NCBI GenBank assembly: GCA_030644725.1
Contig: CP130629.1
Location: 310,001 to 374,000, forward strand
Reading direction: 5' to 3'
From: Candidatus Electrothrix communis
GTDB lineage: Bacteria > Desulfobacterota > Desulfobulbia > Desulfobulbales > Desulfobulbaceae
DNA: 64,000 nt
Shown: positions 29,893 through 47,438 of the stretch, in pieces
How positions within the stretch are numbered: the stretch's first letter is position 1
Layout: every line of letters begins with the position of its first letter
Notes under the pieces: generated by a model
Seen by the model: only the letters and a program-made list of their open reading frames with translations
Databases searched by the model: none
What the model was told of the DNA's origin: nothing
Made by a program: the position numbers and the translations under genes

Positions 29893-30731
29893 GGGAATAT
29901 TTTTAGCGGCAGGGCCTTGGCAGATGCTGCTCCGTGGCGAATCAAACGGCTGAAGAACTCTTCCAGGGCCTCTAGCTTTGCCGAGGAAAGATCGTATTCC
30001 ATAGCTTGGAGATAATGGAGACAGGCAGTGGGGTCCATCGGGATACGGCGAGCCGCCCGTTCAGAGATCTCCGGCAGACGCTCCTGGCCCTGATCACGAC
30101 AGGAAAGCAGGGTCTGATGCAGCTCTCTTGCCGCGTCTTCCGCTGTTGCAAGAAAATCTTCGCGCACAGCGCAGACGGAAAAGACAAAAGGCAGGCTAGT
30201 CTGCTGGTTCCAGAATTCCGCCAGATCGACTTGAACAGGGTAGGGCGAGTTGGTCTCTGTTGCCAGCCGCAGGGCCTCGTCGCCGATGGCAAGCACGGCT
30301 GCCGGTTCGTTGGCAGGATCGCGGGCACCGAAGACCTCGCCGCTGGTATATTTGGGTTTGACTAAGAAAAAATCTTCCAGAATAATGCGCAAGAGCCAGA
30401 CCGAGGTGTCGGACTGACCGGTCATGAGCACCTGTTTGCCGTCCAGCTCCTCCGGCGGAACTGAGGAAAAGAGAAACACACTGCCCACCGGTCCGGTGGC
30501 GGAAATCGAAAGATCAGCCATAATTCGGTACTGCTCTGGTCGGACCGCATACTCGTAGCAGGAGACAAAACCGAGGTCAAGTTCTCCGGCAGCCAGCAGG
30601 CGATTGAGCTGTGCAGGCGGGGCCTCGGTCACGGGCCAGTCTGGGCGATGCACCTGCTCTTTCCATACCTCGTAAATAGGGGCAGTGTTGATGTAGTTGA
30701 CCATGCCGAAGCGTGCCATAGTTTTTTTCAT
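29889..30731 (-). CDS. mqnA: Chorismate dehydratase MqnA
   Basis: MqnA removes water from chorismate to give 3-enolpyruvylbenzoate, the entry to the futalosine menaquinone pathway. The protein (about 280 residues) has GMVNYINTAPIYEVW at the start, LAAGELDLGFVSCYEYA, SISATGPVGSVFLFS and ILEDFF, all typical. The start at 30731 (MKKTM) is preferred by length; ATG 30740 and TTG 30749 are also in frame. Its stop overlaps the NACHT start. MqnC and a deaminase of the same pathway lie at 45-47 kb. Confidence 0.92.
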   Translation of the reverse strand: MKKTMARFGMVNYINTAPIYEVWKEQVHRPDWPVTEAPPAQLNRLLAAGELDLGFVSCYEYAVRPEQYRIMADLSISATGPVGSVFLFSSVPPEELDGKQVLMTGQSDTSVWLLRIILEDFFLVKPKYTSGEVFGARDPANEPAAVLAIGDEALRLATETNSPYPVQVDLAEFWNQQTSLPFVFSVCAVREDFLATAEDAARELHQTLLSCRDQGQERLPEISERAARRIPMDPTACLHYLQAMEYDLSSAKLEALEEFFSRLIRHGAASAKALPLKIFP

Positions 30732-30749
30732 GCTACTCATTTCCCACAA

Positions 30750-32767: not shown

Positions 32768-32940
32768 GTCGTAGCACCTACCCTATGAAGAGGGTATTAA
32801 GACGGCTGTTGATCAACGTCTTCCCCACATTCGGGAGTCGTAGCACCTACCCTATGAAGAGGGTATTAAGACTTCGCCCGAGGAGTATGAAATTCCAACC
32901 TGTTTGGCGGTCGTAGCACCTACCCTATGAAGAGGGTATT
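32768..32940. CRISPR. Minimal CRISPR array: three repeats, two spacers, no cas genes
   Basis: Two identical 36-base repeats (32768-32803 and 32837-32872) begin GTCGTAGCACCTACC and end AGAGGGTATTAAGAC, with a TACCCT/AGGGTA internal stem. A third copy (32910-32940) matches for 31 bases and then loses its last five. Spacers are 33 bases (32804-32836) and 37 bases (32873-32909) and unrelated to each other. No cas gene is in the window, so it is an orphan or remnant array. The degenerate third repeat runs into a GTAGGGGCAGG element that starts six bases later. Direction cannot be settled; the truncated end is probably leader-distal. Confidence 0.85.
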
Positions 32941-33076: not shown

Positions 33077-33120
33077 GTACGTTCAACTGATCTTCCCCTT
33101 CTTCCCTTCAAATCACATCA

Positions 33121-33416
33121 TCATACCCCGCACTCACCCCCCCCCCCAATCTCCAACTCGACCAGCTCCGCCACCCACTGCTTCTTACAGACCGGATATT
33201 TCTTATACTCCTCATAAAAGCGCTGCTTATTATATTTAAACAACCTGATGGGATCAGAGGGATCAAGCTCCGACAAGAGTAATTGATCAGTTCAATAGAA
33301 AGCGGAATATAGTAGAACTGTTTACCTGCCGCAAAGCGCTTCTGTATCCGTTCTAAGGTGAAAAACAGGGGCGGGATTTCTTCTGCATGGCGGGTAATAA
33401 AATTCTTCTTTTTCAT
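33121..33416 (-). pseudogene. Frameshifted small gene downstream of the AAA ATPase
   Basis: The start (MKKKNFITRHAEEIPP) overlaps the AAA stop by ATGA. After IPLSIELIN the frame slips by one base near 33290. The coherent continuation LLLSELDPSDPIRLFKYNKQ...YPVCKKQWVAELVELEI is in another frame and ends near 33121; the unshifted frame continues as Arg/Ser-rich noise to 33108. An 11-C run (33137-33147, G on the coding strand) sits close to the end and could vary in length. The gene may be a real third partner of the AAA module carrying a mutation or a sequencing error. Function unknown. Confidence 0.65.
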
Positions 33417-35389
33417 CTTGCTCCAGCCGCTGTTTTTTCCGCAAGAAGCCGCCGGGCCTCCTGTTCCACCCGGTATTCCTCCAGACGCTGAGCCACCTTG
33501 TTTTCAAAATCCTTGTCCACGATCATGGCCATATTGTCCAGATAGCGGACCACCTCCTGAAAACGGATACTGGCGAAAGACAGACCCTGCATATTGGCCT
33601 TCATCAGCTCCTTAAGCATGTTCAGTTTTTCATTATAGGATCGGGCGAAAAAACAGGCATGATCGTTCATCCATTCCGTGGGGAAATCAAAATCCGTGAG
33701 CCGGGTATTGATGGCTGTCTGGATATTCCGCACATCCCGCGAGGTAAAATGGGGGAACGCCTCCTTGATGTCATGAAAGAGTCGGGCAAAGAAGAGATGC
33801 TCCTCAACGCTGTGCTCTTTCAGGGTCTTTTCAATAACGGTCTTGACCTTGTAGACCCTGGATTCGCTCTGTTCTTCATACTTTTCACTGATCTGGCCCA
33901 TAATATCCTGGGCCGACATGAACTCGTACTCTTCTGGATGTTTCATGTCCACAAAACCGGGCACCATAGCCTCGTAGGCCTGCCACCAGATGTAATCCTG
34001 ATCCAGGAAATCCTCCAGAGTCGTGGCTCCTGCCAGCAGGGAGCGTTTCTGGACACGGGACAGGACTGCCTTGTCCAGGGTCTCGGGCAGGTTGGTGTAG
34101 ATCTGGATCAGCCGGTTGCCCTGCTTGGCTGCCGAGGCCCCCTCGGTGTTGACCAGGAAACTCTCCACCACTTCGATGACTCCGGCGGAGGTACCCCTGG
34201 CTCCGCGATCCCGTAGCTTACCGTCGCCGTCATCAATGGGCGCATAGATAATCATGTCCGGGGAAATGGTGGTCCGAAACCATTTTTCCATGTTCTCGCT
34301 GCTGCCGCCCTGGTAGGTGGAAACAACGGACTGGGGGATGGGATGGTAGAGGAATTTGATGCCCAGATCCTTACACCGATCATGGAGTTCCGTGGCAGTG
34401 GCGGAGATCCCCATGCTCTTGCCGGTCCCGGCGGGTCCGTACTCCATAGTCACTGCCGGAAAACCGCCTAGCTCGTTGATGGGATTCTGCTTCCGTTCCG
34501 TGTCATAGCACATCAGAAACTGGATGGTGCGCCGTGAGCTATGTTTGTACATGGTGTTGCCGACTATATTGCCCCATTCCAAGCGGTTGAAATCTACACT
34601 GCCGCTCACCCGTACGGCATGAGCGGAGAATCCCTCAATGGTGAATTCCTCGCCCTCAAGCTTATAGCCCTTGTTCTCAAAGGGCTCGGTGTACTGAAGG
34701 GAATCCCGGATAAACTCTATCTCATTGAGCACTTCCTGATAATAGAGCTGGGTCAGCTTAACAAAATCCAGCGGGTTTCTGATATTGTCCGCCGCCACAA
34801 AAAAACCGTGGTAGTAGAGCATATAGTTGAGGGCATAGATGTAATTAGCCAGATGCAGCTCCTCGGGCAGGCCAGCAAAACTGACCCGTACCGAATCCAG
34901 GGCCTCGCTCTTATAGGAACTCAGGGCGGATACGATATAGTTGGCCGTGACAAACATCAGGACTGCTGAGGTGGTGATGTTCTTCTGCCGGAATTCGGTC
35001 TGGGCCTCGGGATTGTTTTTCAGGGCCCCGCCGAACTGCTGCTCCTTGAGGGTGTAAAAGTTGGAGGCCTTGGAGTAGAGATTAGCCGCATGCATGCCCA
35101 GGGCAATGCCTTTGCGGACCGCATTCATACAAAAAGCCACATCCGGGTGATAGATGAGCAGCGGGTCATTACTGAGTCGCTTGGCTTTGTCGGCAATGCT
35201 GATCGTCTTCTGGGTCGAGCTATTAGTGATGCTTTTGATAATAGCATGGGCATCGGCCGAGTCCTTGAGACGTTCTTTTTTCACCCTGGGATGCCAGGAA
35301 ACCCGGCGGAGGAAGGCGGATGCCTTTTTGATCTGTTCTTCCAGATCAGCCTGTTTGATCGGCAGGAATCCGCCGCTGTCAGAGTCCAT
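33413..35389 (-). CDS. AAA ATPase of unknown function
   Basis: A 658-residue protein with an uncharacterised helical N-terminal half (about 1-300) and an AAA module: Walker A YGPAGTGKSMG (about 317-327), a Walker-B-like strand MIIYAPIDDGDG (about 378-389), and a sensor-like LIQIYTNLPETLDKAVLSRV with an Arg-finger-like end. The C-terminus is helical and charged. No signal or membrane segment. I cannot place it in a named family. The next frame (33416) overlaps by ATGA. Its first nine codons and 140 bases of upstream DNA are duplicated at 43116-43283, just after the 394-residue gene, which suggests the two were once adjacent. Confidence 0.8.
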   Translation of the reverse strand: MDSDSGGFLPIKQADLEEQIKKASAFLRRVSWHPRVKKERLKDSADAHAIIKSITNSSTQKTISIADKAKRLSNDPLLIYHPDVAFCMNAVRKGIALGMHAANLYSKASNFYTLKEQQFGGALKNNPEAQTEFRQKNITTSAVLMFVTANYIVSALSSYKSEALDSVRVSFAGLPEELHLANYIYALNYMLYYHGFFVAADNIRNPLDFVKLTQLYYQEVLNEIEFIRDSLQYTEPFENKGYKLEGEEFTIEGFSAHAVRVSGSVDFNRLEWGNIVGNTMYKHSSRRTIQFLMCYDTERKQNPINELGGFPAVTMEYGPAGTGKSMGISATATELHDRCKDLGIKFLYHPIPQSVVSTYQGGSSENMEKWFRTTISPDMIIYAPIDDGDGKLRDRGARGTSAGVIEVVESFLVNTEGASAAKQGNRLIQIYTNLPETLDKAVLSRVQKRSLLAGATTLEDFLDQDYIWWQAYEAMVPGFVDMKHPEEYEFMSAQDIMGQISEKYEEQSESRVYKVKTVIEKTLKEHSVEEHLFFARLFHDIKEAFPHFTSRDVRNIQTAINTRLTDFDFPTEWMNDHACFFARSYNEKLNMLKELMKANMQGLSFASIRFQEVVRYLDNMAMIVDKDFENKVAQRLEEYRVEQEARRLLAEKTAAGAR

Positions 35390-35529
35390 TGATCGTTCCG
35401 TTCTTGGTGAAAGAGATTATGCTGTATCTCTCTATGGAGATCCTGCAAAAACAAGATAATGTTCAGTGTATTTTGCATGATAAAGCTCCGAAGTATATGT
35501 GTCAACAGCGACGGAGAAAAAGTGGGGCA
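35362..35529. repeat. 168-bp direct repeat, left copy (R1)
   Basis: Covers the first codons of the AAA gene and its upstream region. It matches 43116-43283 over all 168 bases with three substitutions and no indels. The segment between the two copies (35530-43115) carries the two secreted-protein genes and a riboswitch. Confidence 0.95.
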
Positions 35530-35550
35530 TTGAACGCGGCGGGACAAAAA

Positions 35551-35586
35551 AAAAGGCCCTGAGTCCTACTGGACTCAGGGCCTTTT
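35551..35586. terminator. Strong bidirectional terminator
   Basis: AAAAGGCCCTGAGTCC and GGACTCAGGGCCTTTT pair perfectly over 16 bases around TACT, with A and T runs on both sides. It ends the secreted-protein gene at 35615 and insulates the AAA gene. Confidence 0.93.
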
Positions 35587-35614
35587 CTCTCAACGGAGAG
35601 CTTTTTTTGTTCGG

Positions 35615-38479
35615 TTACTCTTCCAGCAGAAACGCCTTGGCCTGTACATTATTGCTGTGATCCGACTCCGGTATCTGAGTAGTACCGTTGGAGATGAAAT
35701 AAATCATATACATGCCCGGATCCATGGTGCTTAGGTTTCTGTCCGTATAAACCTGCTCCGCTCCGCACTGACCGGCTTTCATGCCGTCGTTCCCGTCATC
35801 GTCAAAGGGGGTGAAGCCGGTGCCGTCGCAGCGAGCATAGGCCCACATGGCCCTTGTCTCAGGAGAACGACCGGAAACAGTACATTGTTCCGCCCAAGGA
35901 TGCAGGGACTCTCCCCATTTGAGGGTATCCGGGAAGCTGATAGCGGTTGCAGCCAGATCAAAACCGCCCGTTGCGGACAGGGCTTCCATTGGATTGACAA
36001 TAACGCAGTCAGGGTCACCCGGTGTAACGGTGATGGTAAGGCTCTGCACCATACTGTTATTACTCATGTTTGACTCGTAAGAAACGTACTTATTGGTTAC
36101 CTTGGCAGTGAGCGTATGCGCTCCTTCTTCAAAGGGCACGGTCCAGCCGCTGATGGTTATCTCGGTGCTGCCGCCTGCGATCAGATCAGCCGCATCAATA
36201 ACCTGCTCTCCTAAGAGCTGATCACCGTCGTACCAGAGCTGCACGACCACCGGAAAATGAGCATCGCCGCCCACGGGCGCGATATTACCCACATCTATGG
36301 TTATATCATGCTTGCTGCCTGCCTTGACCTCAATCAAATCATCGTCAACGCTCAGAGCCTGCACAGCAATATCCGGCAGGGCGTTCTGCACCCAGAACAT
36401 TACCTGCGGTGAGGTGTTGTTGAGTTCATTGCTTTCGCTCAGCTTATCGGTTTCATCAGTGCTGACAGTGATGGAGTACAGGCCCTCGTTGAGCACTGCA
36501 TCACTCGGCAGGGCAAAAGTGATGTTCTCCGCATATCCGGCTGTGCCGAAGCCGGAAATCTGAGTCTGCTTATTAGTGAACTTCCAGCCGGATTCATAAC
36601 CGGGGCCGGTCAGTATGACTGAGGTTTTCAGCTTATGCTTCTGTTCGGCAGCGGAAGGCAGTGCGCCGATGTTTTCTATCCGCACGGTAATACCCGGCAG
36701 GGTCGGCACTTCGGCAGGGATGTAGATGGCCCGGACATTGCCGGAGGCATCATTCAGGTGGATGGAGGCGGGCAGCACGTCCGGGCTGGTTGCGCCGGTA
36801 TTGCTGGTCACGGTGTCGTAGGCCCCGTAATAGATACCGGACAGGCCTGCGCCGTTGGCTCCGCTGTCGCTCCAGCAGAGGTAGTTATCATCCCAGGAGT
36901 GCTTATCCTTGGGTTCGTCCGTGCGCACGCAGTACATATCGGCCATATTGCCGGACTCCGACCAGACAAAATTCAGCTCGCTTTCGTTGGGTACGCAGAG
37001 ATAGTTGTTCTGGAAATGCGGGTCTTGGGATTCGTAGATCTGGGTGCAGCGCATTCCGGCAATCGGGCCGTCGGCTGACCAGCGGATGTCTTCGCTGCGG
37101 GTGGTGCAGAGAAAGTTGTCGCCCCAGCTGTGCGGGTCGGCGGTTTCTTTCCATTGGGTGCAGGTCATGCCGGGGACTGCGCTGTTGGGTGACCAGATAA
37201 AGGTGCCGTCGCTGAGGGGAGTTTCATTGGTTACGATGATTTTTACCCTCTCTTTTTTATCACGAGAGGTTGAACGATTGGTTCCAGTTCCGTAGGCTAC
37301 TGCTACATAGACATAGTATTCACCAGGCTCATTGATAAAGTCAGCCATATCTACATCGTCTACATAGACACTTCTTTTCTTCTCAGCCTCATCTGATAAA
37401 TCTTTATCTTCACTGCCAAGAAATACATCTCCACTATCAAAGATATCATCTTCTGACAGGTAGAAAGAGGCTTCTACTTCGTCAGGCCAAACACCGCCTT
37501 TCCGTTTGAGTTTGACGCGGAAATCCATGTCGTAGATGTCGCCTAACGGGACTTCGATTACATACTCCCAATCATCCTCTCCTTCTTCACTACCACGAAC
37601 AGAGTCAATTCCAACAGCGTTTTTGTACCCTTCCCAAGGATCGTATGGATCTATGTTTGGGTCTTCTCCGCCTTTTCCATTGCCATTACCGTTTCCTGAG
37701 CCAGAGTTTCCATTTCCTCCTCCAGTGTTACCGCCACCGGAGCCATAAACTTCTTCACACATGGAACGTTCTCGATAATGCTTTTCTCCGCAAATATTTC
37801 CATCTGTAATTTCGTACCAAGTATGGGCATCCCAACAATTCGTATCTCCTCCTCGTTCCCAGCATTGGTCGTTTGAGCAACGGTAATCGTCGTGAATTAT
37901 ATGAGTATGCTTTCCGTCAGGATCAGTAAAAACATTTTGTCCGGTAGTGTCGCAATTATCGGGAGCTTCGTAACCATCTAAATACTCGCCCTTTACTTGC
38001 AAATAGATCTTTTTAAAATCTTCAAGATTGTCTTTTTGAGAGTCAAGTTTTGTTATCACGGCAAAATAGCATAGATTACTATCCTCGGAACACCAATAAT
38101 AGTAACTTGCCCCACCGTGCTTTTTAATATGTGTCCGGTGATACCATTCTGTGCTGTAAATATAGACATCCTCCAACTTTATACCCTTTGGAAGAGCAAA
38201 AAAATTCAAATAATCATCTTCACTGTGTCCTTGAGCTTTTCTAAACTGATAGACTTTTCTATAACTTCCTTTTTTTTCCAAAATAAATTTTGGCCCGGTA
38301 TCTGTCCAGCTACCAGGTTCTTTATTCGGAACGTAATCACCCCAGCTTCCGATATAACTATCGTATCCTTCTTTCGACAACCAATGATAACTTTCAGCTT
38401 TATCATACGAAGGAATTGCGAATGAGTTTTGACTGATCGACAGTATAATTATACCTGCCAACATAAAGATACGTCTCAT
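35615..38479 (-). CDS. Large secreted protein with Cys repeats and CARDB-like domains
   Basis: About 954 residues, exported: MRRIFMLAGIIILSISQNSFA is a signal peptide. The start 38479 is favoured by AAAGGAA seven bases upstream. After a Cys-containing N-terminal region come a Gly/Ser/Asn-rich linker (about 246-275), an Ig-like segment, and three ~40-residue repeats with a shared pattern (F/R-x-W-S, G-M-x-C-x-Q/V, E-x-x-D-P/K-H-x-W/Q-x-N-x-L-C) around residues 430-545. Three CARDB-like adhesion domains follow, each ending in ESN-x-x-NN (for example ESNELNNTSP, ESNMSNNSM, ESDHSNNVQA). Function is probably surface binding. It lies downstream of the riboswitch-controlled gene 38784 on the same strand. 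Confidence 0.8.
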   Translation of the reverse strand: MRRIFMLAGIIILSISQNSFAIPSYDKAESYHWLSKEGYDSYIGSWGDYVPNKEPGSWTDTGPKFILEKKGSYRKVYQFRKAQGHSEDDYLNFFALPKGIKLEDVYIYSTEWYHRTHIKKHGGASYYYWCSEDSNLCYFAVITKLDSQKDNLEDFKKIYLQVKGEYLDGYEAPDNCDTTGQNVFTDPDGKHTHIIHDDYRCSNDQCWERGGDTNCWDAHTWYEITDGNICGEKHYRERSMCEEVYGSGGGNTGGGNGNSGSGNGNGNGKGGEDPNIDPYDPWEGYKNAVGIDSVRGSEEGEDDWEYVIEVPLGDIYDMDFRVKLKRKGGVWPDEVEASFYLSEDDIFDSGDVFLGSEDKDLSDEAEKKRSVYVDDVDMADFINEPGEYYVYVAVAYGTGTNRSTSRDKKERVKIIVTNETPLSDGTFIWSPNSAVPGMTCTQWKETADPHSWGDNFLCTTRSEDIRWSADGPIAGMRCTQIYESQDPHFQNNYLCVPNESELNFVWSESGNMADMYCVRTDEPKDKHSWDDNYLCWSDSGANGAGLSGIYYGAYDTVTSNTGATSPDVLPASIHLNDASGNVRAIYIPAEVPTLPGITVRIENIGALPSAAEQKHKLKTSVILTGPGYESGWKFTNKQTQISGFGTAGYAENITFALPSDAVLNEGLYSITVSTDETDKLSESNELNNTSPQVMFWVQNALPDIAVQALSVDDDLIEVKAGSKHDITIDVGNIAPVGGDAHFPVVVQLWYDGDQLLGEQVIDAADLIAGGSTEITISGWTVPFEEGAHTLTAKVTNKYVSYESNMSNNSMVQSLTITVTPGDPDCVIVNPMEALSATGGFDLAATAISFPDTLKWGESLHPWAEQCTVSGRSPETRAMWAYARCDGTGFTPFDDDGNDGMKAGQCGAEQVYTDRNLSTMDPGMYMIYFISNGTTQIPESDHSNNVQAKAFLLEE

Positions 38480-38492
38480 GATAATTTCCTTT

Positions 38493-38684
38493 TTATAGTT
38501 CAATTAGTGACCTGTCAGCTTTACCATCATGCCCGCACTTCTCTCTATCCTCATAAATCCAATCCTCCACCTTCCTAAGCTTCTCCTTAACAGCCCTAAT
38601 CCCCGCCTTTTCCTCCGAAATCCACCCAGAAACAACAGAGCGGAAATCATCACCCCGCGCATCCCTGAGCTTATCGTGCAGCTC
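38493..38684 (-). pseudogene. C-terminal gene remnant cut by a repeat
   Basis: A coherent, charged 63-codon frame (ELHDKLRDARGDDF...EEKAGIRAVKEKLRKVEDW...) ends in TAA 14 bases before the secreted-protein start. It has no start codon and begins exactly at the edge of the repeat at 38684-38768. I do not recognise the parent gene. Confidence 0.55.
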
Positions 38685-38768
38685 GTAGGTTGCGGGTGAG
38701 CGGAGCGAACCCCAACATGTCCGACTCGCCTTATGATTGTCGGGATTCGTTCCTTACCCCAACCTACG
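38684..38768. repeat. CGTAGGTTG inverted-repeat element
   Basis: The ends CGTAGGTTG and CAACCTACG are exact inverted repeats bounding an 85-base element with GGAGCGAACCCC and GATTCGTTCC inside. It separates the two secreted-protein genes and cuts the remnant at 38493. Confidence 0.75.
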
Positions 38769-38783
38769 GGGCTCATTCATCTC

Positions 38784-41700
38784 TTATAAGACATCAACAG
38801 TGAACGTCCACAGAACTGCTCCACTTGCTTGCTCTATTCTCCCGTATTTTTGTCCAGATGTACGTGGTGTACATTTAAATTGCCTAGCTGTAGAGCTTCC
38901 TCCTGATACCCGAACAACACCTATGCAATCCGTAAGAAGAAATTCCAAGTCATCAGGAAGGCCTTTGCCCTTTACTGTAAAAGTAGTTTTTACCTCCAAC
39001 TTGGCCTCCTCCGTTGGTTCCGTTGGTGTCACAGAATAAACGACCGGAGAAGCCGCAGGTTCTTCTTCATCTTCAATAACATCAACAGTGAACGTCTTCA
39101 GAACTGTTCCATCTGTTTGCCTTATTTCCCCCTCTTTTTGTCCAATTGTACGTGGTGTGCAGCTAAACAGCATAGTTGCGGAGCTTACTTCGAGTAACTC
39201 AACACCTGCGCAATCATTAAGAACGAATGCCAAAGTAGAAGATAGGTTATCACCACTTACTGTAAAAATGGTTGTTTTATCCAACATGGCCTTCGGCGGT
39301 GCTACAGAATAAACGACAGGAGAGGCCGCAGGTTCCTCGGAGACATCAACAGTGAACTCTTTTAGGAGCACTCCATCTGGCTTTTCTGTTAACTTCCCTT
39401 TTTTCTGTCCAGATGTACGTGGTGTACAGCTAAATCGCATAGCTGTAGAGCTTCCTTCCAGTGACTGAACACCAGTGCAGTCCGTAAGAAGAAATTCCAA
39501 GGTAGAAGGCAAGTTCTCCCCTATAATGGTAAAATTAGTTGTTACCCCCAAAGTGGCAGTCGTAGGCGATATTGAACGAACGATTACAGGTCTCTTCATC
39601 ACAAGAGTTTCATACGTTCCGCTGATAGAAATCGCATCATCACTATATACGGCCGTAATTCTCACTTCGTTACCAGCACTTTCAAGCAACGCCTCCACAA
39701 GTCCGTTACCAAGAGATGTTGCATACTGGGATTGGGATGTCCACCATGTACACCGATCCGTAATAACACTTTCAGTTCCATCAGAAAAGGTACCCACCGC
39801 CTCGTAATAAGCCTGTCCTCCTTCATAAAGGATACGGTCCTCCTCGCTTTTGGGTTGAACAGTAATTTTCTGCAAAGTGGGTACAGGAGGATCTGTCACC
39901 TTAACGCTGAATTCTTTCAGAATGCTTCCCCCTGCTTTTATTGCACCACTGTATTGCCCAATAATAGCACTCGGTGTACATTTAAACGCTCTCAACATTG
40001 GATTATTTTCACTACCCACCTCAGTAATACCATCGCAGTTGGCAAGCGAAAATTCCAATTCCACTAAATCCAAATTCTGACCAATTACTGTGAAGATCGT
40101 GTCTTGTTGTTTGATAGCGGTTGAAGGTGACACTGAATAAACTATAGGGAGATTACTGTATACCTTGATAAGTTTAATAGCATCAAAAGCAATATATATC
40201 TTGTCACCGTCTTTATCGACAGTTTCTCCTGTGTTATTATTCAGCTTCACATAGTGATTATTCCCTTCAGCAAAATCATACGTCCCAAGGCGTACCCATC
40301 GGTTCTCCAGAGGGCCTTCTATTTCGGCCTGATTCACGGTTTTGTAATCTATGCGACCGTTGTGAGAAATCTGATACTTAGCATTTTTCGTGTTGGCATG
40401 CCCAATAGGTATACTTGCATAAACCGAATAATATCCTCCTTCCGGTATATCAAAAAACCATTTCCCCGCACTGGTCTCCTGGGGGCCTACGATTGTTTTG
40501 GCATAGTGATAATTACCTCCGAACCCGCTATTCTTAGGACAAGGAATATCGTAAGTCTTGCAACCTTCTCCTAAAGTACTGATACTCCACTCCTCCAGGT
40601 TGTCAGCCTTAAAGAAACGTTCCTTGATTACATCTTCATCAATAACAACTTTATTGTTTTTAATGTCACCACTGATACCAGGATAGGTGACAGAGTCTTC
40701 AACGATAATCGTTAGCTGGTATGGATTCTGATAGCTCCTAACGAACGCAAGAGGCGATTCATACGCTTTAAAAACATCTCTTCTTACTCCTAGATCCGTA
40801 TAGTAATCAGCATCTTCTGGGTCAGGATGAAAAGAATCGGATCGTCTGATTTCAAAATGCAAATGCTCACAATGTAGTGCCCCGTCAGCACAAGTCATTC
40901 CGACCTGACTTATATATCCAACCTGATTTCCTTTTTCTATAAGATCTCCCCTCTCAAAGTCTTCATCCAGATGTCTAATATGACCATACTGCGAATAGTA
41001 TATTTCTCCATTGTTTGAATGTTCAATGACTATACCTCCCCAACCATTACTAATGTTGGCAATTCTTCCTTTAGCAATAGCATGAACCGGAACAGTTCTA
41101 CTTCGATCACCTTCTACACTTAAATCACTTCCTGGATGAAAAATATTTCCGTCATCACTCATAAACTTCCAGCCAAAGTTGTCTGATTCAAGATTTTCAA
41201 TAGGCATTTGTGTTTCAAATGTCTGCATTCCTTCATAACGGACATCCCCAGAAGTAAAATGCCAAACATCTGCTACAGCAAATTTCGATACGGTATCAAT
41301 ATCAGTCGATATCTTTTCCCCATCAAGATAAACAGCCAAATCATATTCCGACACCTCAGAAAGCAGCATATCTGGATAATAAGGAATAGTGATTTCCAGA
41401 GGCTCACCAAATTCAGCCCCATCAGGACTTAACTCATATTTTGAGGACAAAGCAGGTTTCTCAACCACCTCACCGGTTTCCTCATCCATAACCTCAACAG
41501 TATACTTTGTCTCCTTGACGGAAATCACCATAGGAGCAGCAACAGCTCCGGCAGGAATGAACAAAGAAAACTTCTCGCCGATTCTTATCTCGCTATCTTC
41601 ATCAGGCATTGCCACAACAGCCGCTATCTCATCTGTCAACGGCGTAATCTCCGCTGTCTCCACCTTGATAACCGGCTTCAGTTTATACGAATACGCAAAA

Positions 41701-42200
41701 GAATTTTTCCCCTTCCGATTGCCTTTCCCGCTTCCTTTAGACCCGTTTTTCCCCCGCTTAACCACAAGCTGCTTTTGCAGGTTCAACTTTAACGTCAGAT
41801 CGGACAGAAACCCGCCCTCTTTGCCAAAAGCTTTCTTCCCCTTCAGCTTCAGTCCGGAACGTTGTCCGCTCGGCACGATTAAAGGAAACGATTCATTATT
41901 CACTGTAATGGTGTTGTTTTCACCAAGAACAAGCCGAAGTTCCTTAGTTCTTTCAGGCAGCAAAACCTGATTGGCAAAATCTATGTTCCCATCAGCCAGA
42001 TCAAGCAGGTTCAGCTGCGTCGGTCCGCTGGCAACAACACAGCCTTTTTTCCTGGCACAGGCCTCCACCCTGAGCACATCAAGAGAAATCTCGGATACCG
42101 CATTGATATCGAATTTCGGTTGCTTCGCCCATGCATTCCCCAAGGGAACGGCAAGTGACAACAGCAACAGCCAATACATCATGCTTTTCAGCCGTAACAT
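38784..42200 (-). CDS. Secreted M23-peptidase-like protein with golvesin-like and IPT/TIG-like domains
   Basis: About 1138 residues. Signal peptide LKSMMYWLLLLSLAVPLGNAWA; start 42200 is chosen for the GAGGTG site just upstream. Residues about 25-170 resemble a DUF4382-type domain and carry a Lys/Gly-rich stretch. A LytM/M23 domain (about 345-460) keeps HPGSD (about 357) and HLHFE (about 443), the zinc ligands of peptidoglycan endopeptidases. A golvesin-C-like domain follows (about 505-670, ending IAFDAIKLIKVY). Four ~85-residue IPT/TIG-like repeats come last, each beginning YSVSP/SISP and holding one conserved Cys pair (DC...F-x-CTP). Predicted cell-surface or cell-junction protein. A GEMM riboswitch lies about 480 bases upstream. 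Confidence 0.85.
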   Translation of the reverse strand: MLRLKSMMYWLLLLSLAVPLGNAWAKQPKFDINAVSEISLDVLRVEACARKKGCVVASGPTQLNLLDLADGNIDFANQVLLPERTKELRLVLGENNTITVNNESFPLIVPSGQRSGLKLKGKKAFGKEGGFLSDLTLKLNLQKQLVVKRGKNGSKGSGKGNRKGKNSFAYSYKLKPVIKVETAEITPLTDEIAAVVAMPDEDSEIRIGEKFSLFIPAGAVAAPMVISVKETKYTVEVMDEETGEVVEKPALSSKYELSPDGAEFGEPLEITIPYYPDMLLSEVSEYDLAVYLDGEKISTDIDTVSKFAVADVWHFTSGDVRYEGMQTFETQMPIENLESDNFGWKFMSDDGNIFHPGSDLSVEGDRSRTVPVHAIAKGRIANISNGWGGIVIEHSNNGEIYYSQYGHIRHLDEDFERGDLIEKGNQVGYISQVGMTCADGALHCEHLHFEIRRSDSFHPDPEDADYYTDLGVRRDVFKAYESPLAFVRSYQNPYQLTIIVEDSVTYPGISGDIKNNKVVIDEDVIKERFFKADNLEEWSISTLGEGCKTYDIPCPKNSGFGGNYHYAKTIVGPQETSAGKWFFDIPEGGYYSVYASIPIGHANTKNAKYQISHNGRIDYKTVNQAEIEGPLENRWVRLGTYDFAEGNNHYVKLNNNTGETVDKDGDKIYIAFDAIKLIKVYSNLPIVYSVSPSTAIKQQDTIFTVIGQNLDLVELEFSLANCDGITEVGSENNPMLRAFKCTPSAIIGQYSGAIKAGGSILKEFSVKVTDPPVPTLQKITVQPKSEEDRILYEGGQAYYEAVGTFSDGTESVITDRCTWWTSQSQYATSLGNGLVEALLESAGNEVRITAVYSDDAISISGTYETLVMKRPVIVRSISPTTATLGVTTNFTIIGENLPSTLEFLLTDCTGVQSLEGSSTAMRFSCTPRTSGQKKGKLTEKPDGVLLKEFTVDVSEEPAASPVVYSVAPPKAMLDKTTIFTVSGDNLSSTLAFVLNDCAGVELLEVSSATMLFSCTPRTIGQKEGEIRQTDGTVLKTFTVDVIEDEEEPAASPVVYSVTPTEPTEEAKLEVKTTFTVKGKGLPDDLEFLLTDCIGVVRVSGGSSTARQFKCTPRTSGQKYGRIEQASGAVLWTFTVDVL

Positions 42201-42236
42201 AGTACACCTCACTTGTTGGAGTTTATGCAGACGGCA

Positions 42237-42656
42237 TTACGCCGTACTGCTTGTTGCTCTTCTGTACGTTCTGAAGCGTGTAGAACTCGTGGAAATATTA
42301 TCGACCCGTACCGCAAGGACGGAGAAAGTTTCTTCCGGGAATTGAGCAGCACAAGGAAAACGATCAGGAATTACCGAAAAAACGGCAAGCAGAGCAGTAG
42401 CGTCAGGATTGGAGTGAGCGGAAGGAGTGTCCGGGTGAGATTGGACATTGTCGGCAGGAGAGATATACGTGCCCACCTGAAGACAGCAGGCCATTTGCCC
42501 GGTCAGAGCAATCCTGTCGTTATTGTTTGAAGAGTTTGTGAAAAGATAGAGAAACAGCAGGATGACAACAAGCAGATCGGAAAGACCGGAGCAAACATGC
42601 TTGTCAATGCGGTTGGAGGTTGTATCCTGGCAGGATACATTTTCCGAGGATTTCAC
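42237..42656 (-). CDS. Doubtful small frame between riboswitch and secreted-protein gene
   Basis: A GTG-started frame (VKSSENVSCQDTTSNRIDKHV, then a hydrophobic helix DLLVVILLFLYLF) follows the riboswitch with a weak GGAG site. The remainder is Ser/Thr-rich and non-descript. It may be untranslated leader; no family is recognised. Confidence 0.25.
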   Translation of the reverse strand: MKSSENVSCQDTTSNRIDKHVCSGLSDLLVVILLFLYLFTNSSNNNDRIALTGQMACCLQVGTYISPADNVQSHPDTPSAHSNPDATALLAVFSVIPDRFPCAAQFPEETFSVLAVRVDNISTSSTRFRTYRRATSSTA

Positions 42657-42684
42657 AACACACTCCCTAGTTAGAAGCAAAAGC

Positions 42685-42770
42685 AGGTAACCCGGCTGTC
42701 TCCTTCATGGAGATCCGTGGCTTTCCGACACCGCCTCGCGACGGCTGTGGCTTTATCAACTTTCCGTTTC
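42685..42770 (-). ncRNA. GEMM-I cyclic-dinucleotide riboswitch (copy 2)
   Basis: On the minus strand: GGAAAGTTGATAAAGCCAC, a hairpin closed by GCGA (GNRA), GGTGTCGGAAAGCCACGG, a TCTCC/GGAGA stem, and AGCCGGGTTACC. It is colinear with copy 1 at 31507 and differs mainly at positions that keep pairing (GTGA to GCGA loop, altered third stem). It points towards the M23-type secreted-protein gene. I do not see an obvious terminator-antiterminator pair here. Confidence 0.82.
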
Positions 42771-42789
42771 TAACCGGAAAGCAAGGCAC

Positions 42790-43115
42790 CCGCTCAGTTA
42801 AATAAGCATTGCCATTTGTTATGATACTGCGGAACGATTCGTGCTCGTTCAATTTTGCGACCCGAGAAAAGGCAACAAAGAATTGAAGCATCGTTTTCAT
42901 CGTATCGGCGGGGATAGAGTATCGCCTGCATTCGACTGAACGGTTGTATTACTACTTCAATTAAAGAAAAACATACAGACTTCTAATCGTCCTGTCAATT
43001 AAAAAGTATTTATATCAGCATGATAAGCGGTAACGGTTATCAGTCCCATACAAGGGTAAGATAGCTGTAGAGTTTACCTGGATAATCTCAGTAGGCTAAG
43101 AGGCTTTTCTTGAAC
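42790..43115. other. Intergenic DNA upstream of riboswitch copy 2
   Basis: No gene is seen. It should hold the promoter for the riboswitch transcript on the minus strand; a TTGAAC...TATCAT pair is present, but the 20-base spacing is poor. Confidence 0.3.
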
Positions 43116-43283
43116 GCAGGAATCCGCCGCTGTCAGAGTCCATTGATCGTTCCGTTCTTGGTGAAAGAGATTATGCTGTATCTCTCTATGGAGATCCTGC
43201 AAAAACAAGATAATGTTCAGTGTATTTTGCATGATAATGCTCCGAAGTATATGTGTTAACAGCGACGGAGAAAAAGTGGAGCA
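43116..43283. repeat. 168-bp direct repeat, right copy (R2)
   Basis: Matches 35362-35529 with three substitutions. On the minus strand it carries the AAA gene's start (MDSDSGGFL) and then diverges, so it is a detached 5' end of that gene. It lies 39 bases past the end of the 394-residue gene. Confidence 0.95.
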
Positions 43284-43322
43284 AGGGAAGCACTTCTGGC
43301 AATGCGTCCCTATGCTTCGCGG

Positions 43323-44507
43323 TCATTTCATCTCGGCACCTGCTCCTTCCTGCCAGAATTGATTTTCGACCGGCATCCCCAGATCAGCCTCGATCAGCAG
43401 TTGCCGTAGCGCAAAGAGATGCTCAAGTAGTTTCGGTTCAATCTCTGCATAACTTGCGGCATCAGGGACGCGGTTCACCACCACGCCCAGCAGCTCCGTA
43501 ATTGCATTGCCCACCGAGTTCTGGCTGATGGTGACGATCAGTTTGCCCTCATCATTACGATAGATAAGCTGCTTGAAGGCAGGCTGCCAACGAATGCTGT
43601 TGGCGTACCTCGGATCGCTGATACAGCGGTCGCGGACCTTCTTGACCGTCTTGAGGAAATCGTTATTATAAAGCAGCACCCGCTCTATCTGGTCCGGGAA
43701 ATAAGCGTGTTCAGGCATGGGCGCATTGCGAGTCGAAACTTGACCGAAGAAGGTACGGTAAAAGTCGAGAAAGCCTTTCAGCACCATATCGTATTCCTGC
43801 CAGAAGCGGATATTCTGTAAGGCTGCTACACCGCCGCGCACCTCCCAACTCGGCAGCCCCTGCGGGTATCCAGTCACTCCAATCTGGGTCAATTCCGTAT
43901 GTGTTGCCTGCAGGATGTTCAAATCCAGTGACTTGGTAAAGAACTCCCGGTACACATGGGGGATATGTTCTGCAAACAGGCTGTGATGGTCACCATCGGT
44001 CAAGTTTGGGTTGTTCGGGTCGGCCAATTTCGCCTGCCGCAGTTCCTCCTTGCTGAAGACGATGAAATGGTTGTGGAGCATGCGGATGCTCGGCACACCG
44101 GGTGAGGTCAGCGCCCAAGTTGCATCCAGGCTGGCTTCACCGGCCAGAACTAGCCATTCGTCTGGGTCAGGATACTGCTCCAGCATGTAGGAGATGATGA
44201 GATAGTTCATCCTGTTCCAGATCTGCCGTACCTGCTCGGGCACCTGGGTGCGGCGCGCAGGCCGTCCGAGCGGATTAAGGATGCACTTGGAGGTGTTGTA
44301 TATAATGGAGGTGTCAAATTCCCGGCTATGGCCCAGGGCCTTGCGGTAGAGGAGTAGATTTTCCGGGGTGAGCAGCAGGCCGTTGTTCTGCACCAGGTCG
44401 TGCAGGTTTTCTGCGCTGTTGAAGAACTCGTTGGGTTTTATGCCCTCTGGAATCGGTAACGGAATCGGTCGGTAGGGAACAGTTATTTCTCGCGGGGTTG
44501 CGTGCAT
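43323..44507 (-). CDS. 394-residue protein of unknown function, probable partner of the AAA ATPase
   Basis: A soluble protein without signal peptide, membrane helix or nucleotide-binding loop. Notable stretches are PYRPIPLPIPEGIKPNEFF at the start, NRMNYLIISYMLEQYPDPDEW and DPRYANSIRWQPAFKQLIYR. I recognise no family. GGAGA lies upstream of the ATG at usual distance. The detached AAA 5' end (R2) sits right downstream, and a shorter piece of it (R3, 44875-44919) lies upstream, so the gene is bracketed by repeats. Linkage to the AAA ATPase is inferred from this. Confidence 0.75.
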   Translation of the reverse strand: MHATPREITVPYRPIPLPIPEGIKPNEFFNSAENLHDLVQNNGLLLTPENLLLYRKALGHSREFDTSIIYNTSKCILNPLGRPARRTQVPEQVRQIWNRMNYLIISYMLEQYPDPDEWLVLAGEASLDATWALTSPGVPSIRMLHNHFIVFSKEELRQAKLADPNNPNLTDGDHHSLFAEHIPHVYREFFTKSLDLNILQATHTELTQIGVTGYPQGLPSWEVRGGVAALQNIRFWQEYDMVLKGFLDFYRTFFGQVSTRNAPMPEHAYFPDQIERVLLYNNDFLKTVKKVRDRCISDPRYANSIRWQPAFKQLIYRNDEGKLIVTISQNSVGNAITELLGVVVNRVPDAASYAEIEPKLLEHLFALRQLLIEADLGMPVENQFWQEGAGAEMK

Positions 44508-44874: not shown

Positions 44875-44919
44875 CTGTCAGAGTCCATTGATCGTTCCGT
44901 CCTTGGTGAAAGATATTAT
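44875..44919. repeat. Third, partial copy of the AAA 5' end (R3)
   Basis: Forty-five bases match R1/R2 with two substitutions and again include the MDSDS start codons on the minus strand. The match stops abruptly on both sides. Confidence 0.85.
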
Positions 44920-44930
44920 TTTGCAACCCG

Positions 44931-45050
44931 TTACAGATTCTGTCGATGCCGATGCTGATGCAGCTTATACGGCATAACAACGGTTTTTTTATCCACATGG
45001 GTGGGCTTGGGGATATAAAACCGCTCCCTGACCTGCTTCTTGGTTAACAT
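44931..45050 (-). CDS. Small 39-residue frame downstream of the deaminase gene
   Basis: MLTKKQVRERFYIPKPTHV begins a basic 39-residue protein (ending HRHRQNL) with an AGGGG site 3-7 bases upstream of the ATG. It lies 50 bases past the deaminase stop on the same strand. It could be a real small gene or the tail of a lost one; no family recognised. Confidence 0.35.
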   Translation of the reverse strand: MLTKKQVRERFYIPKPTHVDKKTVVMPYKLHQHRHRQNL

Positions 45051-45099
45051 ATCCCCTAATATTTCTTGATCCCTGATAACGACCTAGCCTGCGGAGTCC

Positions 45100-46359
45100 T
45101 CAATAGCAGCCTGATTTTTTTGCCGAGCCAGATCGGTTTCCAGGCTGAACCACCAGATATTTCTGGATATCAGAAACACATTTGATGTGACCGGGCAACT
45201 CGACCGCCAAAATCTCTGCCTTTTTCCCCGCTTCCAGCGATCCCAGCGTCCTTTCTAGGCCCAGGGCCTCAGCCCCGCCCAGGGTTGCCATCCGGAGGAT
45301 ATCCGCCGTATCAACGGTGGGATGCTCTTCAGCTAGCAGGTGCATTTCTCGCCAGATGGAGAGCTCAGGATTACTGGTCAGGCTGTCCGTGCCCAGGGCG
45401 GGCAGGATGCCTTTGCGCAGGTATTTTTCCAGCGGGGCTGTGCCCACCCCGAGATAACGGTTGCTGCTTGGACAGAGGCAGATCTTGGCCTTGGTGTCAG
45501 CCAGCAGATCCATTTCTTGGTCCGTAACGTGAAGACAGTGCACGCAAAGTGTCCGGCTGTCAAGAAGGCCGTGTTGATGGAGATAGGACACTGAACCTTT
45601 GCTGTCCGATCCTGTGGGCTGAAAGCTGCTTTCCCAGAACCCTCGTTGCTCAAGAAACTCTCGCATCTCTCCTGTGCCTTGGCTGATCATGTCATGCTCG
45701 GCTGTTGACTCAGCGGTATGGATGGAAAAGATCTGACCCAAGCGGGTTGCCCTGTTTTTCAAAGCGCGGAGCAGGTCAAGGTGGGTGGAGTAGGGGGCAT
45801 GGGCAGTACAGCATATATTGGGGTGATCCACTTCCTCCTTCAGGCTGTCCAGGGCTGCGGCAAGCTCAGATGTCCGCAGGCCGAGGTATTCTTTTAAACA
45901 GAGCAGGCGGCCCTGAAATTCCGGTACCAGTTCTTGGATGAAACCGGTATTGGAGATATCAGCAATGGCAACAACGCCCTGGTCCTGTTGCTGGCTAAGC
46001 ACAGTACGGGCTGCGTCCACTATGGTCTTTTTATCTGCATCAGCCTTGGCCCGCTCGGCAAGCATGTGGCCGATCCAACCGGTAAAGCTGGAAGGGGAGG
46101 GCTCTTGGGAAAGGTAGGCAAGATGGGAAAGCTCCAGATGGGTATGGGCGTTGATCAGGCCGGGCATGAGCACGGCATCAGGATGATCAATGATTTTCGC
46201 CTCTGGATAATGATGGGCAATCTGTTTGAAATCACCGATATCAATAATCAGGCCCGCTCGAACCGCAATGCCGCCATTTGCAAGCGGGGGACGGCGTATC
46301 GGAAGCAGCCAGGGGGCACGATGGATTGTTAGCCTGTCTGTCATTGTTTCTGCTGTCAC
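45100..46359 (-). CDS. Amidohydrolase, probable aminodeoxyfutalosine deaminase (MqnX-like)
   Basis: A 419-residue metal-dependent amidohydrolase of the SAH/aminofutalosine deaminase group: metal site NAHTHLELSH, then HAPYSTHLDLL, HTAESTAEHD, HCLHVTD, CPSSNRYLGVG and ALGTDSLTSNPELS. In genomes using aminofutalosine, this enzyme deaminates it before MqnC acts. The start overlaps the mqnC stop (ATGA at 46356-46359), which strongly supports the pathway role over a general deaminase. Confidence 0.85.
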   Translation of the reverse strand: MTAETMTDRLTIHRAPWLLPIRRPPLANGGIAVRAGLIIDIGDFKQIAHHYPEAKIIDHPDAVLMPGLINAHTHLELSHLAYLSQEPSPSSFTGWIGHMLAERAKADADKKTIVDAARTVLSQQQDQGVVAIADISNTGFIQELVPEFQGRLLCLKEYLGLRTSELAAALDSLKEEVDHPNICCTAHAPYSTHLDLLRALKNRATRLGQIFSIHTAESTAEHDMISQGTGEMREFLEQRGFWESSFQPTGSDSKGSVSYLHQHGLLDSRTLCVHCLHVTDQEMDLLADTKAKICLCPSSNRYLGVGTAPLEKYLRKGILPALGTDSLTSNPELSIWREMHLLAEEHPTVDTADILRMATLGGAEALGLERTLGSLEAGKKAEILAVELPGHIKCVSDIQKYLVVQPGNRSGSAKKSGCY

Positions 46360-47438
46360 TGCTCCTGCCCGACCAGGGTGTAATCCATCAGCCGTTGTTG
46401 CGGCGCGAAACCGGCATCTCTGACTAAGTTTCGGATTTCCTGCTCAGACAGACGGAAATGCACCCCTGCTGCTGCGACCACGTTTTCCTCAATCATGGTG
46501 GAACCGAAATCATTGGCTCCGAAAAAGAGGGAGAGCTGGGCGATCTTCGGGCCTTGAGTCACCCAGGAGGCCTGGACGTTGGCGAAGTTATCGAGAAAGA
46601 TCCGGCTCAGGGCCAGCATGCGCAGGTAGGTAAAAGCGGATGTTTTTTCTATGCGTTGCTCGCCTCGTACATCCTCAGCTAGGGCGGTGTTGTCGGGCTG
46701 GAAAGGCCAGGGGATAAAGGCGGTAAAGCCGCCGGTGCGGTCCTGGAGGTCGCGCAGGCGTTGGAGATGCTCCAACCGTTCTTCCATGGTTTCTATATGA
46801 CCGAACATCATGGTGGCTGTGGTGCGCATCCCCAGATTATGGGCTGTTTCCATGACTGCGAGCCATTCGTCTGCCGAGCATTTACGCGGGGCCAGCTGCT
46901 GCCGCACCCGGTCGGTGAGGATCTCAGCCCCGCCGCCGGGGATGGAATCGAGACCTGCGGCCATGAGCCGTTGCAGGACCTCTTTGACCGAGAGCTTGGA
47001 CAGCTCGGCAAAATGGCAGATTTCCGGCGGGGAAAAACCGTGGATATGAATGCTGGTGGCCTTCATAAAGCGGAGCATGTCCTCGTAATATTCTAAAGGC
47101 AGATCAGGGTGGAGACCACCTTGGAGGAGGATCTGGGTGCCGCCGAGGTCTTGGGTCTCCTGAATTTTTTGGAGCAGCTCGTCCTTGCTCAGGACACTGC
47201 CCGCCGGGTCTTCTGGGGCCTTGAAAAAGGCGCAGAATTTACAGGCCGAGATGCAGATATCCGTATAATTAATGTTCCGGTCAATAACATAGGTGACCTG
47301 CGGCTCCGGGTGCAGCCGTTTACGGACGGCATCAGCCATAAAGCCGAGTTGGTGGAGGTCGGCCTTGTCGGCGAGGAGGAGGAATTCTTCGCCGGTGATG
47401 CGCTCTCCGGCAATGACTTTATCTATTATTTGCTGCAT
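46356..47438 (-). CDS. mqnC: Cyclic dehypoxanthinyl futalosine synthase MqnC
   Basis: Radical-SAM enzyme that cyclises dehypoxanthine futalosine. The 360 residues hold IDRNINYTDICISACKFCAF with the CxxxCxxC 4Fe-4S site, ILLQGGLHPDL, SIPGGGAEIL and FIPWPFQPDNTAL, which separate MqnC from the related MqnE. It is the first gene of a two-gene unit with the deaminase. MqnA is 16 kb away; mqnB, mqnD and mqnE are not in the window. Confidence 0.92.
   Translation of the reverse strand: MQQIIDKVIAGERITGEEFLLLADKADLHQLGFMADAVRKRLHPEPQVTYVIDRNINYTDICISACKFCAFFKAPEDPAGSVLSKDELLQKIQETQDLGGTQILLQGGLHPDLPLEYYEDMLRFMKATSIHIHGFSPPEICHFAELSKLSVKEVLQRLMAAGLDSIPGGGAEILTDRVRQQLAPRKCSADEWLAVMETAHNLGMRTTATMMFGHIETMEERLEHLQRLRDLQDRTGGFTAFIPWPFQPDNTALAEDVRGEQRIEKTSAFTYLRMLALSRIFLDNFANVQASWVTQGPKIAQLSLFFGANDFGSTMIEENVVAAAGVHFRLSEQEIRNLVRDAGFAPQQRLMDYTLVGQEQ

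What the first reader, a model, noticed from the sequence alone, without database searches (positions are those of the whole stretch)
35362..43283. Perfectly colinear 168-bp direct repeats bracket a 7.6 kb secreted-protein island that splits a probable operon
R1 (35362-35529) and R2 (43116-43283) agree at 165 of 168 positions with no indels. R1 is the living 5' end of the AAA gene. R2 is a detached copy lying 39 bases after the 394-residue gene. Removing one repeat plus the island would put the 394-residue gene directly upstream of the AAA gene. The island carries its own riboswitch, two large surface proteins and a terminator, so it looks like a cargo segment inserted with a long duplication, or made by unequal recombination.
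Basis: partly seen in the sequence, partly recalled or inferred. Interest (0 to 1): 0.72.

Follow-up and report, generated by a model that had tools for sequence, protein, structure and literature searches.

The report
Duplicated gene junction with swapped cargo
In a cable-bacterium genome, surface-protein genes sit between duplicated copies of the junction of two neighbouring genes; related species carry other cargo in the same slot, so it looks like ordinary recombination-driven genome remodelling with an unusually clear history.

Summary
The repeats are real: R1 and R2 agree at 165/168 positions without gaps, in a one-contig Ca. Electrothrix genome. A third, 45-bp copy (R3, 44875-44919) was missed and changes the reading. 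R3 is the original junction between the AAA gene and a 381-residue gene. In Desulfopila IMCC35008 these genes overlap with nothing between them; in Ca. E. gigas and aarhusensis the 381 gene still ends in that copy, while a second copy, behind a terminator and promoter, starts AAA. Between the copies each species has different cargo: two large surface-type proteins behind a c-di-GMP-I riboswitch (window), a propeller-like protein behind a similar riboswitch (gigas), a toxin-antitoxin-like pair (aarhusensis). In the window the 381 gene is a fragment, and the 394-residue gene lies between R3 and R2. R2 is a hybrid, as if two cargo alleles were stacked by recombination in the core. Core copies are more alike within than between genomes, on few columns. 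'Cargo with duplication, or unequal recombination' holds; 'a 394-AAA operon was split' does not. Against independence of the two cargos: in G001 and G004 a riboswitch also lies 400-500 nt downstream of the 394 gene. No recombinase was found. Moderate interest.

The parts
35362..35529 (-). R1: leader with promoter plus first 28 nt of the AAA gene
43116..43283 (-). R2: hybrid copy; R1-type leader upstream, cassette edge downstream
44875..44919 (-).
44881..45095 (-). broken remnant of the 381-residue gene (residues ~296-381), AAA's original upstream partner
   Evidence: tblastn; stops inside; alignment
33413..35389 (-). AAA ATPase gene, 658 aa (dN/dS 0.065 against G002)
33108..33416 (-). 102-aa ORF: remnant of a DUF6638 gene (residues 304-353 and 372-415 of 417 recognisable)
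35477..35505 (-). promoter-like site TTGACA-17-TATCAT (11 of 12) before AAA
   Evidence: leader also in G001, G002, G004
43231..43259 (-). same promoter in R2, -35 box changed to TTAACA (10 of 12)
35551..35586 (-). intrinsic terminator hairpin at the 3' end of the island
35615..38503 (-). 962-aa CARDB protein, probably secreted; residues 253-962 95% identical to a paralogue at G000:C1:82200-84287
38784..42212 (-). 1142-aa protein, probably secreted: DUF4382, M23 peptidase, golvesin-C, TIG
42683..42761 (-). c-di-GMP-I riboswitch (RF01051) ahead of the 1142-aa gene
42970..42998 (-). cassette's own promoter-like site TTGACA-17-TATGTT, inside sequence conserved in G002 and G007
43323..44507 (-). 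394-residue gene without a recognised family, lying between R3 and R2
45100..46359 (-). amidohydrolase beside mqnE; flank of the whole block
46356..47438 (-). mqnE-like radical SAM gene (menaquinone; name mqnE recalled)
29889..30749 (-). menaquinone biosynthesis gene (mqnA-like), adjacent to the amidohydrolase in G001, G005, G007; other flank of the block

Best explanation
The ancestral locus was an operon 453 - 381 - AAA - DUF6638 in which the end of the 381 gene overlapped the start of AAA. In an ancestor of at least three Electrothrix species a cargo cassette entered at that junction and the junction was duplicated (about 45-95 bp still recognisable), so the upstream copy completes the 381 gene and the downstream copy, behind a terminator and a new promoter, starts AAA. 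The two copies are short homologies around a slot; recombination between them, and between alleles with different cargo, keeps them alike and swaps or stacks cargo. In the window the partner genes decayed, and one such exchange joined a '394 gene' allele to a 'surface protein' allele inside the 45-bp core. This gave R3 - 394 gene - R2 - island - R1 - AAA, with R2 a hybrid of R1's leader and the surface cassette's edge. Shown by sequence: the junction identity, the empty site, the three slot contents, the hybrid nature of R2, the decay. Inferred: homologous recombination as the agent, the single stacking event, and that the surface proteins are made under c-di-GMP control.
For: Empty site: Desulfopila IMCC35008 has 440-381-AAA-DUF6638, the 381 ORF (8869-10014) overlapping AAA (from 10001) with no insert. 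G004 and G002 have complete 381 genes ending in the upstream copy, and a second copy starting AAA. Slot contents differ: Gp49-family plus HTH ORFs in G004; a 798-aa SGL/propeller-like protein with riboswitch and a BrnT ORF in G002; 1142 plus 962 aa in the window. R2's cassette side is homologous to the cassette edge in G002 and to a stand-alone cassette in G007, while its leader is R1's. Core sites (columns -29 to +14): of 10 variable columns 5 are uniform within each genome and differ between genomes, none sorts by copy type, 5 do neither; of 7 variable columns just outside, 2 (-36, -30) sort by copy type. Core distances are 0-3/45 within the window, 5-9/45 from the window's copies to those of G002/G004. 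R1-R2 (165/168) is closer than R1 of the window to R1 of G004 (150/164, 5 gap columns).
Against: The homogenisation signal rests on 5 columns in three genomes; 4 of the 5 set the window apart from both others. At -11 and -24 R3 agrees with G004 against R1 and R2, and G002 and G004 copies are only 3-4/45 apart, close to their within-genome 1-2. No genome was found with the 394 gene alone in the slot, the allele that stacking needs. In G001 and G004 a c-di-GMP-I riboswitch lies about 400 and 490 nt downstream of the 394 gene on the same strand, as it lies 561 nt downstream in the window. The genes that follow are unlike the window's and no riboswitch was found in the G003, G005, G007 loci, but 3 of 6 may mean that the two cargos did not come together by chance. 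G002 and G004 are drafts. R3 has lost its AAA-coding side after 14 nt. About 39 bp of R1's leader next to the core, and the origin of its promoter, are unexplained; the same leader stands before an unrelated TorD-molybdopterin gene in G001.
Confidence: 0.6

Rival explanations
1. Template-switching replication (microhomology-mediated) made two independent templated insertions: first the surface cassette with a duplicated junction, later the 394 gene together with a re-copied 168-bp stretch of R1. No standing recombination slot is needed.
For: The ends of AAA homology differ in every copy (14, 28, about 35 and about 61 nt from the start codon; sequences printed), as expected of imprecise switches. 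The 962 gene's 3' part is itself a near copy of a segment at C1:82-84 kb whose shared DNA ends near the terminator.
Against: Does not by itself explain why core copies agree within genomes while two columns of the leader outside agree by copy type across species.
Confidence: 0.23
2. The 394 gene and a riboswitch cassette form a loose travelling unit, and arrived or were rearranged together; R2 was copied between them later by gene conversion from R1.
For: A c-di-GMP-I riboswitch lies 400-560 nt downstream of the 394 gene on its strand in the window, G001 and G004.
Against: In G002 the window-like cassette edge and riboswitch stand at the junction without a 394 gene; the sequence between the 394 gene and the riboswitch and the genes that follow in G001 and G004 are unlike the window's; no riboswitch was found at the 394 loci of G003, G005, G007.
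Confidence: 0.07
3. A site-specific integrative element that targets the AAA 5' end and restores it, with R1 and R2/R3 as attachment sites.
For: Cargo beside a restored gene end is typical of such elements (recalled). The insert lies at the same gene junction in three species. The island's inner ends share a weak imperfect inverted match of about 24 nt (10 of 500 shuffles as good), one arm being in the terminator.
Against: No integrase or transposase family in 13 of the 17 ORFs of 80 aa or more inside the island or the small slot ORFs scanned in G002 and G004; copy ends differ from genome to genome.
Confidence: 0.05
4. One reading: the 394 gene and AAA were an operon that the island split.
For: Removing one repeat plus the island puts the 394 gene directly upstream of AAA.
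Against: In relatives AAA's upstream neighbour is the 381 gene and the 394 gene lies elsewhere.
Confidence: 0.03
5. Assembly artefact at one of the repeats.
For: Repeats can mislead assemblers; reads were not available.
Against: The genome is one contig; the copies differ at 3 positions; G002's separate assembly shows the R1 - riboswitch cassette - junction order.
Confidence: 0.02

Closest known systems
Repeat-mediated duplication and stacking of islands by homologous recombination (tandem accretion, Campbell-type insertion; recalled)
   Same: Direct repeats bracket cargo; a hybrid repeat sits between two cargos; cargo differs between relatives.
   Different: The repeat is a host gene-gene junction rather than an attachment site or IS, and no recombinase was found; the copies look homogenised within each genome.
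Integrative elements that insert in a gene end and restore it (recalled)
   Same: The target gene (AAA) keeps a complete 5' end beside the insert.
   Different: No integrase found, no fixed core, repeat ends vary.
AAA - DUF6638 operon as in Desulfopila IMCC35008 and, distantly, Vibrio and Sinorhizobium plasmids
   Same: Same order 381-like - AAA - DUF6638. In the Sinorhizobium record an endonuclease-domain gene and an IS4-family transposase separate AAA from the DUF6638 homologue.
   Different: In the window 453 is not found at the locus, 381 and DUF6638 are fragments, and the 381/AAA junction holds cargo.
c-di-GMP-I riboswitch (RF01051)
   Same: Reaches the Rfam gathering score; stands ahead of a large gene of the 1142-aa kind or the 798-aa gene in the window and in G002, G003 and G007 loci.
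   Different: The aptamer is about 470 nt ahead of the 1142-aa gene; no expression platform was looked for.

Membership tests
Site-specific integrative element | Recombinase encoded in the insert | tested here: not met
   13 of the 17 ORFs of 80 aa or more inside the island were scanned with Pfam; no integrase or transposase. Small slot ORFs of G002 and G004 likewise. ORFs under 80 aa were not scanned.
Site-specific integrative element | Fixed boundaries in independent insertions | tested here: not met
   AAA-side homology of the copies ends 14, 28, about 35 and about 61 nt from the start codon.
IS or composite transposon | Short fixed target duplication | tested here: not met
   Duplications here are 45 to 168 bp with varying ends.
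IS or composite transposon | Terminal inverted repeats | tested here: inconclusive
   a weak imperfect inverted match of about 24 nt between the island's inner ends (10 of 500 shuffles as good, one arm in the terminator); none at the 394 block (397 of 500). One search looked only at arms of 40 nt or more and found the two riboswitches.
Repeat-mediated stacking by homologous recombination | Hybrid repeat between two cargo segments | tested here: met
   R2 has R1's leader and the surface cassette's edge; R3 has the 381 side and the 394 side.
Repeat-mediated stacking by homologous recombination | Alleles with single cargo exist | tested here: inconclusive
   Slots without the 394 gene seen in G002 and G004; none with the 394 gene alone.
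Repeat-mediated stacking by homologous recombination | Excision or exchange products in a population | not testable with these tools
   No reads available.
AAA - DUF6638 operon | 381-like gene directly upstream of AAA, DUF6638 downstream | tested here: met
   L058 without insert; G002 with cargo between 381 and AAA; the window keeps remnants in the same order.
c-di-GMP-I riboswitch | Rfam gathering score | tested here: met
   53.9 bits against 35 at 42683-42761 minus.

The most novel reading that the evidence does not exclude
A duplicated gene-gene junction works as a standing landing pad without a recombinase: short copies kept alike by recombination allow surface-protein and toxin-antitoxin cassettes to be exchanged and stacked inside an operon while both bordering genes stay whole, a natural, integrase-free cassette slot in cable bacteria.
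Probability: 0.28. Interest if true: 0.55.

Novelty: new member of a known kind. Interest (0 to 1): 0.38.

Why it matters
It gives a readable history, with an empty site, intermediates and a stacked state, of how a bacterial operon is opened, kept working by a duplicated junction and a new promoter, and then used as a slot for surface-type proteins in an uncultured filamentous lineage. If the within-genome likeness of the copies holds in more genomes, it would be a testable case of cassette exchange by homologous recombination alone. It also places c-di-GMP riboswitches ahead of variable, probably secreted proteins in cable bacteria; a full-text search of the held library for 'cable bacteria' with 'c-di-GMP' listed 6 papers, each with 1 to 3 occurrences of the second term; I saw the listing only.

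Tried and rejected
Considered and rejected: 394-AAA as the original operon; a site-specific element (boundaries vary, no recombinase in the ORFs scanned); R1's leader as native to the TorD-molybdopterin gene (present in G001, not found in any of the six orthologue loci searched, G000, G002, G003, G004, G005, G007). A pattern for the leader's promoter core gave 8 places in the genome at up to 2 mismatches against 1 for the reversed control, so a wider promoter family is possible but weak. For the 394 protein no Pfam, NCBIfam or PADLOC family at E 0.01 and no PDB chain at E 1 was found. AAA has no match in the phage collection and 10 distant ones on plasmids. A phylum sample of 395 genomes gave only G000 at E 1e-20; the two positive sister genomes were evidently not in that sample. 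The genome-contig scan used two 7-residue patterns and gave 3 loci, so relatives lacking those words would be missed. DUF6638 is in no paper of the held library; the six-term search found none.

Limits: the 394 gene's upstream flank (44508-44874) matches nothing among the loci fetched by then except the window's own copies.
Full report
Observation. The window is part of a one-contig genome of 4,845,585 bp. In that genome the repeat occurs in full only twice, plus a third 45-bp copy, R3, at 44875-44919 (96%).

Organism. Two sister genomes in the window's genus match named contigs by length and place: G002 is Candidatus Electrothrix gigas AU1_5 (QYLO01000008.1) and G004 is Ca. Electrothrix aarhusensis MCF (MTKO01000082.1). 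The window is thus from a cable bacterium of that genus. E. communis RB has a published closed genome (PMC11976967, passages seen), so it is a candidate; this was not tested. G007, 5.09 Mb in one contig, may be Ca. E. scaldis (PMC10926707, passages seen); also inference.

What the repeat is. Read on the minus strand, R1 is a promoter leader plus the first 28 nt of a 658-aa AAA ATPase gene; a terminator hairpin lies just upstream of it. In Desulfopila sp. IMCC35008 (L058) that gene stands in the order 440 aa - 381 aa - AAA - DUF6638, and the 381 ORF (8869-10014) overlaps the AAA start at 10001, with nothing between. More distant relatives on Vibrio plasmids keep hypothetical - AAA - DUF6638 (one record looked at); in the Sinorhizobium record an endonuclease-domain gene and an IS4-family transposase lie between AAA and the DUF6638 homologue. 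In G004 and G002 the 453 and 381 genes are complete, and the last bases of 381 are the upstream copy of the repeat core, overlapping a relic of the AAA start. A second copy, behind the leader, starts AAA. The core is therefore the duplicated 381/AAA gene junction. In the window, 453 is not found at the locus (tblastn), and 381 survives only as a broken fragment (about residues 296-381) at 44881-45095, ending in R3. DUF6638 is reduced to the 102-aa ORF. In the whole genome the only trace of 381 is that fragment; 453 was not searched genome-wide.

The slot. Between the upstream junction copy and R1 each genome carries something else. G004: about 1 kb with a Gp49-family ORF and an HTH ORF, which resemble a HigB-HigA pair (the name is recalled). 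G002: about 5 kb with a 798-aa protein (SGL above its cut-off, Vgb_lyase below it) behind a c-di-GMP-I riboswitch, a BrnT ORF and a look-alike ORF that was not scanned. Window: the 1142-aa and 962-aa proteins behind a c-di-GMP-I riboswitch. The cassette's 5' edge and promoter are homologous in the window, in G002 at the same place, and in G007, where a related cassette stands elsewhere without the repeat. Residues 253-962 of the 962-aa protein are 95% identical to a second gene at G000:C1:82200-84287, and shared DNA ends near the terminator. Pieces like the terminator lie next to related genes at several places in the genus. The block sits between an mqnA-like gene and the amidohydrolase-mqnE pair. 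Those genes are adjacent, without the block, in G001, G005 and G007. In G003 mqnA was not found within the fetched 20 kb, G006's contig ends inside the 453 gene, and G004's ends inside DUF6638. AAA was found in 3 of 8 genomes of the genus (3 of 37 genomes, the window's own included).

The 394 gene. It was found in 9 of 37 genomes, the window's own included, 6 of them among the 8 of the genus, in differing neighbourhoods: beside the 780-aa gene in G005 and G007, and next to a 780-like gene in G010. It was not found in G002. In the window it lies between R3 and R2. R2 is a hybrid: its 5' part is R1's leader, its 3' part runs into the surface cassette's edge. R3 has the 381 side upstream and 394-side sequence downstream. 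One crossover in the core between a 'junction - 394 - R1' allele and a 'junction - surface cassette - R1' allele gives this order. No genome with the first allele was found. A fact against chance meeting of the two cargos: at the 394 loci of G004 and G001 a c-di-GMP-I riboswitch also follows the gene on its strand, about 490 and 400 nt after its end (561 nt in the window), although the genes after it differ (279-aa and 265-aa ORFs in G004, a 130-aa ORF in G001). At the 394 loci of G003, G005 and G007 no riboswitch was found. I cannot explain this.

Homogenisation. In the core, the window's copies differ from one another at 0-3 of 45 columns and from those of G002 and G004 at 5-9; G002 and G004 differ from each other at 3-4 and within themselves at 1-2. 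Of 10 variable core columns (-29 to +14), 5 are uniform within every genome and differ between genomes, none sorts by copy type, and 5 do neither; two of those (-11, -24) have R3 agreeing with G004 against R1 and R2. Of 7 variable columns just outside (-40 to -30), 2 sort by copy type. That pattern is what recombination confined to the core would leave, but it rests on few columns. R1 and R2 (165/168) are closer than R1 of the window and R1 of G004 (150/164, 5 gap columns), so R2 is young. At two of the three R1/R2 differences R2 departs from the state of R1 in G004 and G002 and of the G001 leader (sequences); one alters the -35 box.

Function. R1's promoter is the best sigma-70-like site of 19 in the region (11 of 12); the total of 19 is not clearly above shuffles (mean 13.5, sd 4.4). 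The hairpin before it folds at -30.2 kcal/mol, z -8.6. AAA has dN/dS 0.065 against G002 over 655 codons, dS 1.34, so it has been conserved over the divergence as a whole; selection since the loss of its partners cannot be told from this. The likely present state is: the surface proteins are made from the cassette's own promoter under c-di-GMP control (inferred), a terminator ends that transcript, and AAA is expressed from R1. What AAA does is unknown; Pfam gives only the AAA domain.

Mobility. 13 of the 17 ORFs of 80 aa or more inside the island were scanned and none is an integrase or transposase. The island's inner ends share only a weak imperfect inverted match (10 of 500 shuffles as good).

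Verdict. The claim that the island splits a 394-AAA operon is wrong: the broken operon is 381-AAA, and the 394 gene came in besides. The processes are known kinds. The clear series of states, and the hint that a gene junction serves as a recombinase-free slot, make it moderately interesting.

Noticed in passing
32768-32937: Two exact 36-bp repeats (GTCGTAGCACC...AAGAC) 69 bp apart and, by eye, a third, truncated one: a CRISPR-like mini-array. cas genes were not looked for.
   Followed up: partly
31517-31595 (+): A second c-di-GMP-I (GGC variant) riboswitch on the other strand; the surrounding 109 nt are 85% complementary to the island's one. No ORF of 80 aa or more starts within the next 1.3 kb on its strand.
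   Followed up: no
L043 10354-12101 (G004), L046 3701-5361 (G001), window 42683-44507: A c-di-GMP-I riboswitch lies 400-560 nt downstream of the 394-aa gene on the same strand in three genomes, with unlike genes after it; not seen at the 394 loci of G003, G005, G007.
   Followed up: partly
L049 (G001:C115) 1594-1716: The terminator-promoter leader of R1 stands before an unrelated TorD/molybdopterin gene in G001 but was not found at its six orthologue loci searched; 59 bp of the leader are 97% identical to R1's.
   Followed up: partly
38680-38773: A roughly 90-bp dispersed repeat between the two surface-protein genes, also matched in fetched loci of G001, G002, G004 and G007.
   Followed up: partly
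L041 9272-11250 (G004): The AAA frame is interrupted (two ORFs of 403 and 256 aa); it may be a draft error or decay.
   Followed up: no
window 43323-44507 and 47834-50176; L044, L048, L016: The 394-aa gene and a 780-aa AAA gene are neighbours in G005, G007 and, in the other order, in G010 of another genus: a possible functional pair of unknown role.
   Followed up: partly
23718-24017 and 26009-26308: A 300-bp direct repeat at 92% elsewhere in the window.
   Followed up: no
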